A DNA stretch of 64,000 nt. Source: Henriciella pelagia. GTDB taxonomy: Bacteria > Pseudomonadota > Alphaproteobacteria > Caulobacterales > Hyphomonadaceae. The translations under genes were made by a program, and so were the position numbers. This document shows, piece after piece, positions 6,498-13,561 of the stretch. The stretch spans positions 62,001 through 126,000 of the forward strand of contig NZ_NCSU01000016.1 in NCBI RefSeq assembly GCF_002088945.1, written 5' to 3'. The notes beneath the pieces were generated by a model that was not told where the DNA came from, did not search any database, and worked only from the letters and a program-made list of their open reading frames with translations. Within the stretch, counting starts at the first letter, position 1; every line of letters starts with the position of its first letter.

Positions 6498-6623
6498 TGA
6501 CCAGCCCCAGGGCCCGAACCGCCCGGAAATTGCACCCGTCCACACACCGGACACAGGGGCGCAGATGGGAGCGCCAGGACCGCTGCCACGCCGTACAGGA
6601 ACGGGCATAGCTTTTTCCAGTCG

Positions 6624-7871
6624 TTGAATGCCCGTCAGCTGGCCTATGACACCGCGAAAAACCGTGTCAGCCAGGTCACCGACTCTGCGGGTGGCGGCAC
6701 GCAGGCCTGGACCTATGATGCACGCGGCAATGTCACGGATAACGGCCCCAACGCGTTCACCTATGACACGGCCAACCAGCCGACCTCCATTACGGCGACA
6801 GGCCTCAGCGAAGCCCATACCTATGACGGCAATCTGAAGCGCGTCAAAACCGTCCGCAATGGTGAGACGACCTATTGGGTCTACTCCGTGCTCACCGGCA
6901 CGCCGCTTGTCCAGGATGAGGTGACCGCCGGTGACATCACCCATTACCTCTCCGGCGGCGGGCTGACGCTTCGCCTGCTGAATGGCACGGCGCATCGCTA
7001 TACCCACCTTGATCATCAGGGCACGCCGCTGGCGCAGACCTGGTACACGGGTCTGCTGGCATGGCGTGAGCACTATACGCCCTATGGCGAGAAGACGATG
7101 CGCCACGCCTCCAACGATAATGACATCGGCTATACCGGCCATGTCCAGGACGACCTGTCCGGCCTCACCTATATGCAGGCCCGTTATTACGACCCGGTCG
7201 CCGCCCGCTTCCTCTCAACCGACCCCATCGGCTATCAGGACCAGTTCAATCTCTACGCCTATGTCGGCAATGATCCGGTGAATATGACGGACCCGACGGG
7301 GATGTGTTCAGAGGAAAATTCAGGTTCCGGAATACTATGTGGGTTCGAAGATTGGTTGACGTCGAAGATCGAACCAATGGTCGAAGGTGCGATGGAGTCG
7401 GCTGGCGTCGATGTAGTACCCGAAGGTCAAAGGGACCCGAATGGGGTTTACGGTCATGAGGCCGATCCAAATACACCTATAGAAGAAGCATCAGCGATCG
7501 CTGGCCGAGTGGCTGAAGCAGGTGCCGAGCGGATGAATCCGCTTGGTGCAATTAAGCCAATAAAGAAAGCTATTGATGATATTCCTGCTTCGACACCCGT
7601 TGGCCGCAGAGGAAGTCCAATGGATGTAACGCCAGGGACAAATGCACCTGGAAGCGTTGGCGGTCGAGATTATTCAGGGCATGCATTCGATCAAATGCAG
7701 GGTCGTGGGATACCTCCATCGGCGGTAGAAAACGCAATTGGTACGGGTGCCCGTTCAGCAGGAAGAACCCCGGGAACTTCCGTTTTTCGGGATGGAACCA
7801 ATGGTGTGAGTGTCGTTGTTGACGATGCATCAGGTCGTGTAGTTACAGTCATCACAACTGGTAGGCAGTAG
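6624..7871 (+). CDS. RHS core fragment with DUF4258-like (BECR-fold) toxin tip, cassette A
   Basis: 415 aa from a TTG with no clear ribosome site; probably a 3' fragment rather than a complete gene. Residues 1-90 hold YD repeats (TYDARGNVTD, FTYDTANQPTS). The core follows to about residue 226 and ends in the hallmark DPIGYQDQFNLYAYVGNDP and DPTG. The tip after DPTG has no similarity to the other cassettes. Its last about 70 residues (YSGHAFDQMQGRGIPPSAVE...) resemble DUF4258: an early His, an RGI motif, then a strand-rich end with GVSVVVDD and VVTVITT. This fold family includes RNase toxins. The next gene begins 5 bases later and is a candidate immunity gene. Toxin activity is inferred from architecture. 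Confidence 0.7.
   Translation: MNARQLAYDTAKNRVSQVTDSAGGGTQAWTYDARGNVTDNGPNAFTYDTANQPTSITATGLSEAHTYDGNLKRVKTVRNGETTYWVYSVLTGTPLVQDEVTAGDITHYLSGGGLTLRLLNGTAHRYTHLDHQGTPLAQTWYTGLLAWREHYTPYGEKTMRHASNDNDIGYTGHVQDDLSGLTYMQARYYDPVAARFLSTDPIGYQDQFNLYAYVGNDPVNMTDPTGMCSEENSGSGILCGFEDWLTSKIEPMVEGAMESAGVDVVPEGQRDPNGVYGHEADPNTPIEEASAIAGRVAEAGAERMNPLGAIKPIKKAIDDIPASTPVGRRGSPMDVTPGTNAPGSVGGRDYSGHAFDQMQGRGIPPSAVENAIGTGARSAGRTPGTSVFRDGTNGVSVVVDDASGRVVTVITTGRQ
6879..7302 (+). repeat. RHS core repeat, copy A (424 bp)
   Basis: This 424-bp block runs from the codons for YSVLTGTPL to the codons for DPTG. It matches 9896-10319 at almost every base with equal length, and its 3' half matches 8484-8694 and 11921-12061. 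Identity at the DNA level, including silent sites, points to recent duplication or gene conversion. Confidence 0.9.
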
Positions 7872-7876
7872 TAAGT

Positions 7877-8155
7877 ATGAACCCTGTATTCGAACAAATG
7901 CGAAATACGTCGAAGGCCTTCCGGGGCGATCAAGGCACGCTTCAAAGTGTTGTTTTTGCGTTAGATGCTCTGCGAATGAACAGCGATTTGCCGATTGAAA
8001 AGCTTGATGACTTTTACTTTATGCTCGAAGAAATTAACGCCGTGTGTTTGGATCAGAAGCGTCAGTTGTCCACGAGCGAAACCGAGGAAATTTTTAGCAT
8101 TCTTAAAGAGGTTGAAGCACTTATGAAGGCCTCAGATGATGGATTGGCCTGTTAG
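7877..8155 (+). CDS. Candidate immunity protein for cassette A tip
   Basis: 92 aa, acidic and apparently all-helical (for example LDDFYFMLEEINAV and TEEIFSILKEVEALM); no signal peptide or membrane segment. It starts 5 bases after the stop of the DUF4258-like tip, the normal place for a cognate immunity gene in polymorphic toxin systems. I do not recognise a named family. Base composition is AT-rich like the tip and unlike the flanking metabolic genes. Its stop codon abuts the 65-bp structured repeat at 8156. A cytoplasmic inhibitor would suit a nuclease-type tip. Confidence 0.6.
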   Translation: MNPVFEQMRNTSKAFRGDQGTLQSVVFALDALRMNSDLPIEKLDDFYFMLEEINAVCLDQKRQLSTSETEEIFSILKEVEALMKASDDGLAC

Positions 8156-8220
8156 GCAAGATAAAGCGAGTTTCCCCTGCGGGGCGAAATCGCAGCTAAA
8201 ACATTGTAAATACGATCTTT
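8156..8220 (+). repeat. 65-bp structured inter-cassette repeat, copy 1
   Basis: It starts directly after the immunity stop codon with GCAAGATAAAGCGA and ends with AAATACGATCTTT; the same 65-base length recurs at 9668-9732. The centre folds as GCGA + bulged G + TTTC ... GAAA + TCGC, closed by C/G pairs. Copy 2 keeps the bulged G while stem bases change in pairs. The following about 120 bases (to 8340) contain the palindromes GGCGCCAATTTGGCGCC (about 8226-8242) and GATCAATTGATC (8313-8324) and are a diverged match to 9733-9890. Confidence 0.75.
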
Positions 8221-12061: not shown

Positions 12062-12607
12062 GAAGATGGTTACGCACTATCGGGAGAAATTGACACTCCA
12101 GCGGGCAAGGCTGAGGTATCTGCGGGTGTAAACTTAACTGGTGAAAACAAAGGTTTGTTTATTGGATTGCAGATAGGAACACCTTTGGGCGGAACCAGCG
12201 CAGGTGCTCCAACTACAGCTTCAAGAGCAGGTGCATCTACAGAAGTTTCAGGCGAAGCATTTCAGACCGATAACTTGGATAATCGCTTCGGTGCTGGCTT
12301 GAGCAGCAGCATAAACGTACCGTTGACGCCGACGCTGGCAGGCGTGGGGACAGAGAGTTCATCTAATCAAGAAGGCACCTACACCGAATTGGAAGCAAGT
12401 GTTTCTGAAGGCGCAGCCTTTTCGGCCCATGCCACCCAATCCTCAGGACTATCTCTAACTGGGAATGCTGTTGGATTGAGGTTAGCCGCTCACGGCCCTG
12501 ACGGATCAGTAAGTCAGCGGCTAGACACGACATCGCCAGCGGCTAGAGCTATACAGAACGTGAATAGATTGTCATACGAACTTACAGGAAAGATGCTGAT
12601 TAAGTGA
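11933..12607 (+). CDS. RHS core fragment with unrecognised tip, cassette D
   Basis: 224 aa; the first about 43 residues are the end of the core (MQARYYDPVAARFLSTDP ... DPTG), the remaining 180 are a tip of unknown type. The tip is Ser/Thr/Gly-rich with alternating hydrophobic residues suggesting beta-strands (GEIDTPAGKAEVSAGVNLTG; GLFIGLQIGTPLGG; SGLSLTGNAVGLRLAAHG) and ends ELTGKMLIK. No Cys, and no HNH or BECR signature, was found. It could be a beta-rich membrane-acting effector. The downstream gene overlaps by 4 bases and encodes a membrane protein. No promoter or ribosome site is visible, so it is probably a silent cassette. Confidence 0.55.
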   Translation: MQARYYDPVAARFLSTDPIGYQDQFNLYAYVGNDPVNKVDPTGEDGYALSGEIDTPAGKAEVSAGVNLTGENKGLFIGLQIGTPLGGTSAGAPTTASRAGASTEVSGEAFQTDNLDNRFGAGLSSSINVPLTPTLAGVGTESSSNQEGTYTELEASVSEGAAFSAHATQSSGLSLTGNAVGLRLAAHGPDGSVSQRLDTTSPAARAIQNVNRLSYELTGKMLIK

Positions 12608-13056
12608 CCCGATTGTTGAGGCTCAAATCAACGAAAGGCGTTAGTAGCTTTCCCGATGAAGTGTGGGCCAAGGTTCTCGCATCCAGTTCAGAGAATTATG
12701 GTAGCCCGAATGTTGCAACAATCTCACATCGAAAAATCACTGATGATCTAATCCAAATAGTCGATTCAAAAAATGGATCGGCTCACTGGAGCTCAGGAGT
12801 TTGGTTGGTAAAAAAATCCGGCGAAATGTACGTCGCACCTCAATTGCTTTCAGCAATATTAATAGTTGCGGGCACGCTGTTGGTCATCTTTTTCTTTGCG
12901 CTATCGGCAATGTACAGGAAACTCGACAACGCTGTATTTGTTTTACCGGTGCTCATCATCGTCTTGATGTCCGCTATAAGTGTTTATTTCACGCCGTCCC
13001 CTCGGCGATCTCAAGTCGTGCATTACCTGAACTCAATACGGAGCTTCAATAGTTGA
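12604..13056 (+). CDS. Membrane protein, candidate immunity for cassette D
   Basis: 150 aa from a GTG that overlaps the cassette D stop (GTGA). The first about 75 residues are soluble (for example FPDEVWAKVLASSSENYG and HWSSGVWLVKKSG). Two hydrophobic helices follow: LLSAILIVAGTLLVIFFFAL (about residues 80-99) and AVFVLPVLIIVLMSAISVYF (about 109-128). A short basic tail follows. The tight coupling to the unrecognised tip and the position at the end of the cassette argue for immunity function. I recognise no family. AT-rich composition matches the tips. Confidence 0.55.
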   Translation: MTRLLRLKSTKGVSSFPDEVWAKVLASSSENYGSPNVATISHRKITDDLIQIVDSKNGSAHWSSGVWLVKKSGEMYVAPQLLSAILIVAGTLLVIFFFALSAMYRKLDNAVFVLPVLIIVLMSAISVYFTPSPRRSQVVHYLNSIRSFNS

Positions 13057-13099
13057 GCCTATTGTTACCAGATATCTAAATTTGTAGACCCATTAACAC

Positions 13100-13561
13100 G
13101 CTGGCCTGCCCCCGCCGGGGCCTTCTCCGCCTTCATTTGATCCCCCGGATCAATTCATTCGGCTGATGTCAATCCACCTTCGAAGGAGTCTACTCATCGC
13201 TCCTCGGAACGCCCGTGATCAGGGATGACCGCGCCATCAATGAGTGGGCCATCTCCTACAGTGTCGGCGGGGCCTCGGTGCGCCTGGTCTATTCGGTTCC
13301 GCATTACACGCATAATGATGCGCAGGGTCTATGGGCGTCATCGCGGACAATATGAGTGTTCTCACCTCCCGGAAGTTTTTCACGCCCTATGGCGAAAAGA
13401 TCGCGGGCCCGGCCTGCAACGCGGATAATACGGGCCCGCCCACCGCACCCTTCTGTACCTCTACCCAACTCACCGGTCCAGCTGATCCGTCTGACGCCGG
13501 ACCGCCCGCGACGGCCCGGCCACGTCCAGGCGTTGAGCGCGACCGCCATGCGTTCGAGTGA
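13100..13561 (+). pseudogene. Decayed terminal RHS core remnant (no tip)
   Basis: The piece at 13100-13165 resembles the inter-cassette spacer (CCGCCGGGGCCTTCTCCGCC then GATCCCCCGGATCAA). Next, one frame reads GVYSSLLGTPVIRDD and ISYSVGGASVRLVY, a diverged match to the core. A frame shift leads to VLTSRKFFTPYGEKIAGPA. A third frame has GHVQALSATAM near 13515, echoing the core GHVQDD. A perfect 9-bp inverted repeat (13403-13411 and 13431-13439) matches the hairpin at 11872-11908. No tip or immunity gene follows. Confidence 0.65.

What the first reader, a model, noticed from the sequence alone, without database searches (positions are those of the whole stretch)
6600..13561. Array of RHS toxin-tip/immunity cassettes without any RHS shell
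Four cassettes share near-identical core DNA (424 bp in A and C, shorter in B and D) but carry four unrelated tips, each with a different small gene after it. Three more core fragments are decayed. Nothing resembling the large RHS N-terminus is present. Established work on orphan RHS tips supports exchange by recombination; here there appears to be a stored set of at least four toxin/immunity choices, including two tips I cannot assign.
Basis: partly seen in the sequence, partly recalled or inferred. Interest (0 to 1): 0.72.

Follow-up and report, generated by a model that had tools for sequence, protein, structure and literature searches.

The report
Toxin-immunity modules bearing conjugation-site relics
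This bacterial genome, likely of the genus Henriciella, holds a row of four predicted toxin-and-antidote gene modules with no delivery protein found anywhere in its assembly, and two of them end in a hairpin-forming DNA element that resembles the predicted DNA-transfer start site of conjugative elements, so the modules likely came in, and were reshuffled, through DNA transfer between cells.

Summary
Window 6.6-13.5 kb carries four RHS core ends (A and C share 425 bp at 97%), each followed by an unrelated tip and a different small gene. They are the only RHS cores found in the 3.44-Mb assembly, and no shell was found. Orphan RHS modules are known since 2011. With no shell, a tip bank for the cell's own shell is not supported; metagenome variants (P0124, P0004) do show that the modules recombine.

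The unexpected part follows the small genes of A and B: a ~69-nt hairpin element, "sp". A model of it gave 26 hits in 398 genomes of the order; 17 lie within 2 kb downstream of an RHS core (11 of 19 without training copies), also after full-length shells. A similar sequence lies 150-350 nt upstream of RlxS-like relaxases (28 of 56 loci against 1 of 670 control blocks), where oriT is expected. Four of the 17 RHS-linked copies are followed by a broken rlxS start (two matched directly, two through a related relic). I conclude that this 3' border derives from a conjugative oriT region. Movement through it is inferred; most RHS modules lack it.

The parts
4615..6497 (+). Left flank: membrane protein of a glycosyl-type cluster (4615-6123) and EamA-like gene (6120-6497)
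   Evidence: both have matches in order in G025
6624..7304 (+). Cassette A, RHS core fragment (5' truncated)
7305..7871 (+). Cassette A, tip; C-terminal DUF4258-like stretch below cut-off
7877..8155 (+). Cassette A, small gene (92 aa), predicted immunity gene by position
8155..8223 (+). sp element of A (hairpin, oriT-like); weaker likeness to the B copy runs on to 8273
   Evidence: R1 77.8 bits; 52 of 69 identical to B copy; D5
8271..8345 (+). Palindromic dispersed element before core remains of B
8484..8690 (+). Cassette B, RHS core fragment
8691..9293 (+). Cassette B, tip, glycine-zipper-like; has relatives on other RHS proteins
9307..9609 (+). Cassette B, small gene (100 aa, membrane-like by eye), predicted immunity gene
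9667..9735 (+). sp element of B (hairpin, oriT-like); likeness to A copy runs on to 9785
   Evidence: R1 83.6 bits; DNA fold z -3.85
9815..9896 (+). Palindromic dispersed element before core of C
9897..10318 (+). Cassette C, RHS core fragment from the VYS codons on
10319..11278 (+). Cassette C, tip: linker, pretoxin HINT, HNH
   Evidence: PF07591, PF01844 above cut-off
11248..11553 (+). Cassette C, small gene (101 aa), predicted immunity gene
11918..12061 (+). Cassette D, RHS core fragment (a decayed piece precedes it at 11814-11917)
12062..12607 (+). Cassette D, tip without known family
12604..13056 (+). Cassette D, small gene (150 aa, membrane-like by eye), predicted immunity gene
13101..13190 (+). 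Palindromic dispersed element before the last core remains (E)
13190..13440 (+). Decayed core remains E, no tip
   Evidence: (D6)
13786..14979 (-). Right flank: histidine kinase
   Evidence: 86% identical in G025

Best explanation
The region is an array of four predicted RHS toxin-tip/immunity modules for which no delivery shell is found in the genome, and two of them end in a hairpin element (sp) that resembles the predicted origin of transfer (oriT) of RlxS-like conjugative elements, so the modules likely entered and were reshuffled as passengers of such elements. Shown: shared core ends; unrelated tips and small genes; no shell found; sp starting 0-99 nt after the nearest small ORF in the 17 RHS-linked copies of the order, with full shells among them; a similar sequence upstream of RlxS-like relaxases; broken rlxS starts after 4 of the 17 RHS-linked copies. 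Inferred: that the relaxase-side sequence is oriT (no nick was mapped); that incoming DNA swaps or adds modules by homologous recombination, with the core as left arm and sp with its flank as right arm; that the array grew so and then decayed, losing rlxS and the shell. Present use, inferred: the tips show no convincing start of their own and are probably not delivered, while the small genes may still protect the cell.
For: Array and absence of shell. Exchange in near relatives. sp tied to RHS modules: 6 of 6 pattern hits in 61 genomes lie at RHS orphan loci, reversed-pattern control 0; 17 of 26 model hits in 398 genomes within 2 kb downstream of an RHS core on the same strand, 11 of 19 without training copies. 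Hairpin kept by paired changes (23 cells vs 9.7, sd 2.5; slid controls 0-5). Likeness to the relaxase-side sequence: 28 of 56 relaxase loci score 20 or more of 25 against 1 of 670 control blocks; R1 hits upstream of 5 of 30 relaxases at E 0.0024 or better; 49-55 of 62 bases shared between five RHS copies and the f4 relaxase-side sequence. rlxS relics after RHS-linked sp: G220 and G361:C40 match intact relaxases, G123:C2 and G279 match the G171 relic, which matches intact relaxases; 0 of 27 upstream stretches match. Position of oriT: PMC11963761, passages.
Against: Only A and B of the four cassettes have sp. R1 reaches E 0.01 at 0 of 26 relaxase loci of the own genus (best 0.14), and the 3' half of the window's sp differs from the genus' relaxase-side copies, the own one included. 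Single-sequence folding is mixed: 7 of 20 rows beat 95% of shuffles, and sp A alone is not special as DNA (z -0.75). The count of pairs with two-sided change is weak (36 of 500 shuffles reach it), and that alignment is fitted to the structure and holds two partial duplicates. No RHS core lies in the fetched flanks (up to 1.5 kb) of 60 relaxase loci, so no intact element with an RHS module next to oriT was seen. Most RHS modules have no sp: 6 exact pattern hits against 64 core matches in the same 61 genomes. The three f4 relaxase-side copies compared are one and the same 62-nt sequence.
Confidence: 0.55

Rival explanations
1. Plain relic: an RHS locus lost its shell by deletion, what remains decays, and sp is only an operon-end hairpin whose likeness to oriT is incidental.
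For: Truncated and decayed cores; no shell; the f4 type of sp is followed by a short T run (by eye).
Against: sp is not listed as a plus-strand terminator in the window. The likeness covers the sequence and not just a hairpin, the same sequence precedes relaxases, and broken rlxS starts follow it. All four tip and small-gene frames are open.
Confidence: 0.2
2. Immunity bank: the array is kept because its small genes protect the cell from neighbours whose RHS proteins carry these tips; the tips are dead weight.
For: Orphan immunity genes are expressed and protect in E. coli EC93 CDI (PMC3150448, passages); tip and small-gene frames are open; relatives of tip B sit on other RHS proteins. It can hold together with the main explanation.
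Against: No expression or selection test was possible; it does not explain sp or why tips are kept.
Confidence: 0.4
3. Stored tips for exchange with a shell: the cassettes are choices for one expressed RHS protein of this strain.
For: Conserved core as homology arm; mosaic variants in metagenomes; G022 has a 1577-aa RHS protein followed by further core copies.
Against: No shell found in this genome.
Confidence: 0.1
4. Palindromic-element cutting: insertion of a dispersed ~75-nt palindromic repeat into the core separated tips from shells and gave the 5' ends of the cassettes.
For: The element abuts core at the same VYS codons before B, C and E, lies inside the core of an RHS gene in G020, and at the MQARYY codons of two orphan cassettes in a Robiginitomaculum contig (by eye). 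Three further copies with E up to 0.002 lie elsewhere in this genome.
Against: A and D have no such element at their 5' ends; the insertion points differ between genera; no mobilising protein was looked for.
Confidence: 0.2

Closest known systems
Orphan rhs-CT/rhsI and cdiA-CT/cdiI modules (PMC3150448, passages read)
   Same: Tip plus immunity gene behind a short piece of conserved core, unrelated tips side by side, arrays of several modules, no start signals for most orphan tips
   Different: There they mostly follow a full-length gene; here no shell is found in the genome, and a conjugative-oriT-like 3' border is present on two modules
RlxS-type integrative and conjugative elements such as ICEMlSym-R7A (PMC11963761 and PMC8627217, passages)
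   Same: Hairpin sequence upstream of the relaxase gene, in the region where oriT lies; rlxS remnants follow some RHS-linked copies
   Different: In the window no relaxase, integrase or transfer gene lies next to the array (relaxase by search, the rest by eye); the own rlxS is on another contig
Leading regions of conjugative elements (PMC11541004, passages)
   Same: Toxin-antitoxin and orphan antitoxin genes placed close to oriT
   Different: Contact-delivered RHS toxins are not in the passages that I saw; which side of sp would enter first is not known here

Membership tests
Orphan RHS tip/immunity module | Conserved Rhs core end followed by a polymorphic tip | tested here: met
   TIGR03696 above cut-off in four ORFs; identity collapses after DPTG
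Orphan RHS tip/immunity module | No shell attached | tested here: met
   with local positive control
Orphan RHS tip/immunity module | Tip is toxic and the small gene neutralises it | not testable with these tools
   only tip C has toxin-type domains above cut-off (HINT, HNH)
RlxS-type oriT | Hairpin sequence shared with the region upstream of RlxS-like relaxases | tested here: met
   weaker in the own genus
RlxS-type oriT | Relaxase gene directly downstream | tested here: not met
   no relaxase match in the window; relics only at some RHS-linked copies elsewhere
RlxS-type oriT | Nicking by the relaxase and transfer | not testable with these tools
   needs a mobilisation assay
Intrinsic terminator | Stem followed directly by a T run on the coding strand | tested here: not met
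   one search lists a site at sp B on the minus strand only and none at sp A; the scan as a whole finds no more sites than shuffles (6 vs 7.2)
Integron gene cassette (attC) | attC core motifs in the right order at the cassette end | tested here: inconclusive
   compared by eye with motifs recalled from memory, order does not fit; nothing relevant in Rfam

The most novel reading that the evidence does not exclude
sp is a working oriT in trans: RHS tip/immunity modules are mobilisable units that RlxS relaxases carry between species, with the toxin and its antidote close to the first DNA to enter, and module arrays grow by conjugation plus recombination between core and oriT.
Probability: 0.15. 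Interest if true: 0.85.

Novelty: new variant of a known kind. Interest (0 to 1): 0.55.

Why it matters
How polymorphic toxin tips and their immunity genes move between strains and species is explained so far mainly by recombination in the conserved core, which gives a left arm only. A shared right border of conjugative origin would supply a right arm, tie RHS diversification to a named family of conjugative elements and make the question directly testable. It also gives a sequence mark for finding exchangeable modules in genomes.

Tried and rejected
Integron cassettes: sp was compared by eye with attC core motifs recalled from memory; the order of the motifs does not fit, and Rfam gives one chance match (snoRNA, E 0.82). 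Fragmentation of one rhs gene by sequencing error: rejected, the tips are unrelated. A shell elsewhere in the genome: none found. Structure models: tip B mean pLDDT 47.6, tip D 33.0, too weak, so no fold search was made. Plasmids: two weak core matches only. The first broad scan of sp (63 stretches) was mostly chance or other families: 4 of 63 have an RHS core in the fetched stretch (two of the four are the Henriciella contigs already known); 18 more, grouped by eye, share another sequence that leads to a relaxase-type ORF where the stretch is long enough, which gave the oriT idea (protein printed for two). P0017, first taken for a relative of tip D, aligns well only over the core. G171 first looked RHS-linked; its upstream side matches a relaxase locus, so it is counted as a decayed relaxase locus. 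A first relaxase N-terminus profile rested on 4 sequences only and a second on 50 was too diffuse to see short relics; the BLAST part and carry the claim, and the weak profile hits at G308 and G051 are not counted. Literature: the listings show no title or abstract that links Rhs modules with oriT or RlxS, and one search finds no paper with both Henriciella and Rhs; only open-licence papers were searched and most were seen as listings.
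Full report
Observation. Window 6.6-13.5 kb holds four RHS core ends, each running into a different tip and small gene. A and C share 425 bp at 97%; with A, B shares 210 bp at 94% and D 144 bp at 92%. Identity is 90-98% before the DPTG codons and 38-54% right after. Tip C is linker-HINT-HNH; tip A ends in a DUF4258-like stretch below cut-off, tip B is weakly glycine-zipper-like, tip D has no family.

No shell. The genome (3.44 Mb, 16 contigs, completeness given as 100) has only these four core matches, by DNA and by profile. A 1200-aa shell N-terminus from G220 finds nothing in it; locally the same query finds five other shells at 41-46% over 1148-1229 aa and two at 26%. 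Of 61 genomes, the own one included, 25 have RHS cores, 64 matches in all. G022 has a 1577-aa RHS protein with a signal-peptide-like start (by eye) followed by further core copies. The genus is inferred: the sp copies of unnamed G014 and G017 sit at the same positions on contigs of the same lengths as those of Henriciella barbarensis NZ_QWGB01000003.1 and Henriciella marina NZ_JAPWGW010000002.1.

Locus. G025 has similar flanks: the left-hand genes at 57-71% and the kinase and regulator on the right at 86% and 78%, with about 8 kb of other genes between (acyltransferase, ligase and dehydrogenase types by eye) and no RHS core. G020 has the right flank only among what I looked at. The array therefore seems to sit in a variable slot.

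Recombination in near relatives. P0124 equals C's protein over the core and, but for one residue in the alignment, the HINT-HNH part, with a different linker between them. P0004 carries a B tip identical to the window's on a longer, different core. Tip B has relatives at 31-63% identity on other RHS-type proteins. Of the 120 hits shown for D of 1404, apart from its own cluster, nearly all cover 19-49% of the query, that is mainly the core; its small gene finds only its own cluster.

The 3' border. Right after the small gene of A, and 57 nt after that of B, lies a hairpin element, sp. Its 19-nt pattern gives 6 hits in 61 genomes, all at RHS orphan loci: two here, two in G012, one each in G014 and G017; the reversed pattern gives none. 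Model R1, built from eight copies (its E-values are rough), gives 26 hits in 22 of 398 genomes. With wide neighbourhoods, 17 of 26 have an RHS core on the same strand within 2 kb upstream; without the 7 training copies, 11 of 19. Of the other nine, G189 and G342 have RHS cores 2.9 and 4.6 kb upstream, one G012 copy has a core downstream only, G333, G123:C4, G274 and G171 lead into relaxase sequence, and G138 and G393 have neither; G171, G274 and G393 have under 1.5 kb of upstream sequence. In the 17, the nearest ORF of 60 aa or more ends 0 to 99 nt before sp. Full or long RHS frames carry sp too: G220 1593 aa, G180 1579 and G186 856 in frame length. The hairpin is kept by paired changes (23 cells vs 9.7, sd 2.5; slid controls 0-5); but the alignment is fitted to the structure and holds two partial duplicates, the number of pairs with two-sided change is reached by 36 of 500 shuffles, and alone only 7 of 20 rows fold better than 95% of shuffles. 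The window has no third copy, so C and D lack sp.

Link to conjugation. The collection scan also returned 18 stretches, grouped by eye, with an sp-like start; where the stretch is long enough a large ORF follows, and two of these, printed, hold an HUH-like motif. One R1 hit, G333, lies 228 nt before a 688-aa ORF with DUF3363 at 7.8e-107 and Relaxase at 2.2e-6, both over cut-off, and the RlxS model at 531.8 bits, below its cut-off of 850. Relatives occur in 192 of 396 genomes; the own genome has one on contig C12. Two words taken from the RHS copies score 20 or more of 25 in the 450 nt upstream of 28 of 56 relaxase loci, against 1 of 670 control blocks from the same loci (the window's copies score 22 and 23). 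R1 passes E 0.01 at 5 of 30 order loci and at 0 of 26 loci of the genus. Five f4 RHS copies share 49-55 of 62 bases with the f4 relaxase-side sequence, which is the same in the three loci compared. In ICEMlSym-R7A the rdfS operon lies upstream of oriT and rlxS, and RlxS is said to nick oriT (PMC11963761, passages); hence the reading as oriT, which was not tested.

Relics of rlxS. After RHS-linked sp, pieces of an rlxS start match intact relaxases in G220 and G361:C40; in G123:C2 and G279 they match the relic of G171, which in turn matches intact relaxases. That makes 4 of 17. G051 shares DNA with the G171 relic region and is not counted. None of the 27 sites shows relaxase similarity upstream. 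Sequence downstream of sp is shared among several loci whose last 300 nt before sp are unrelated, while sharing upstream is seen only in two pairs, among relaxase loci, and between G171 and one of these. The window's two copies have no relic; after them, likeness to G012, G017 and each other's spacer is short.

Mechanism, inferred. An element carrying core-tip-immunity-oriT enters a cell; homologous recombination in the core on one side and in sp and its flank on the other swaps or adds a module; later the relaxase part and, here, the shell are lost. Against a present role of the window's copies: their 3' half differs from the relaxase-side copies of the genus, the own one included. No RHS core was found within the fetched flanks (up to 1.5 kb) of 60 relaxase loci, so an intact element with an RHS module beside oriT was not seen. 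Most RHS modules have no sp (6 pattern hits, against 64 core matches, in the same 61 genomes), so this is one route among others.

The 5' border. A dispersed palindromic element of about 75 nt lies before the core remains of B, C and E, each time at the VYS codons, and at other core positions in G020 and in a Robiginitomaculum contig. Three copies with E up to 0.002 lie elsewhere in this genome. I treat it as a separate repeat that may help to cut tips from shells.

Verdict. Orphan RHS modules are known (PMC3150448, passages). A 3' border derived from a conjugative oriT region did not turn up in the searches made. I file this as a new variant of a known kind.

Noticed in passing
L055 7478-7559 (G020): The dispersed palindromic element (11-bp perfect arms) lies inside the core of an RHS gene and shifts its frame (by eye), parting shell from tip.
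   Followed up: partly
L127, about 2946-3006 and 1526-1580: In a Robiginitomaculum contig two orphan RHS cassettes have a similar palindromic element at the same core codons (MQARYY); in the first the frame stays open through the element, reminiscent of palindromic elements inside genes.
   Followed up: partly
L217-L275, 130-360 nt upstream of the relaxase match: Many RlxS-like relaxases of the order share a sequence of the form GGCAAGAT-AAAG, inverted repeat, TTGTCTGCACATC, T run: a candidate oriT consensus.
   Followed up: partly
3140-6123: Two neighbouring paralogous membrane proteins (59% identical); G025 has four relatives at 51-58% in the same cluster.
   Followed up: no
L056 and L058 (G017, G012): Their RHS orphans sit beside methylmalonyl-CoA-mutase-like genes (by eye), so orphan arrays of the genus lie at different chromosomal places.
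   Followed up: no
15943-64000: By eye a carbohydrate-use region: glucosidase-like, large receptor-like and tryptophan-halogenase-like ORFs and regulators (list); not annotated.
   Followed up: no
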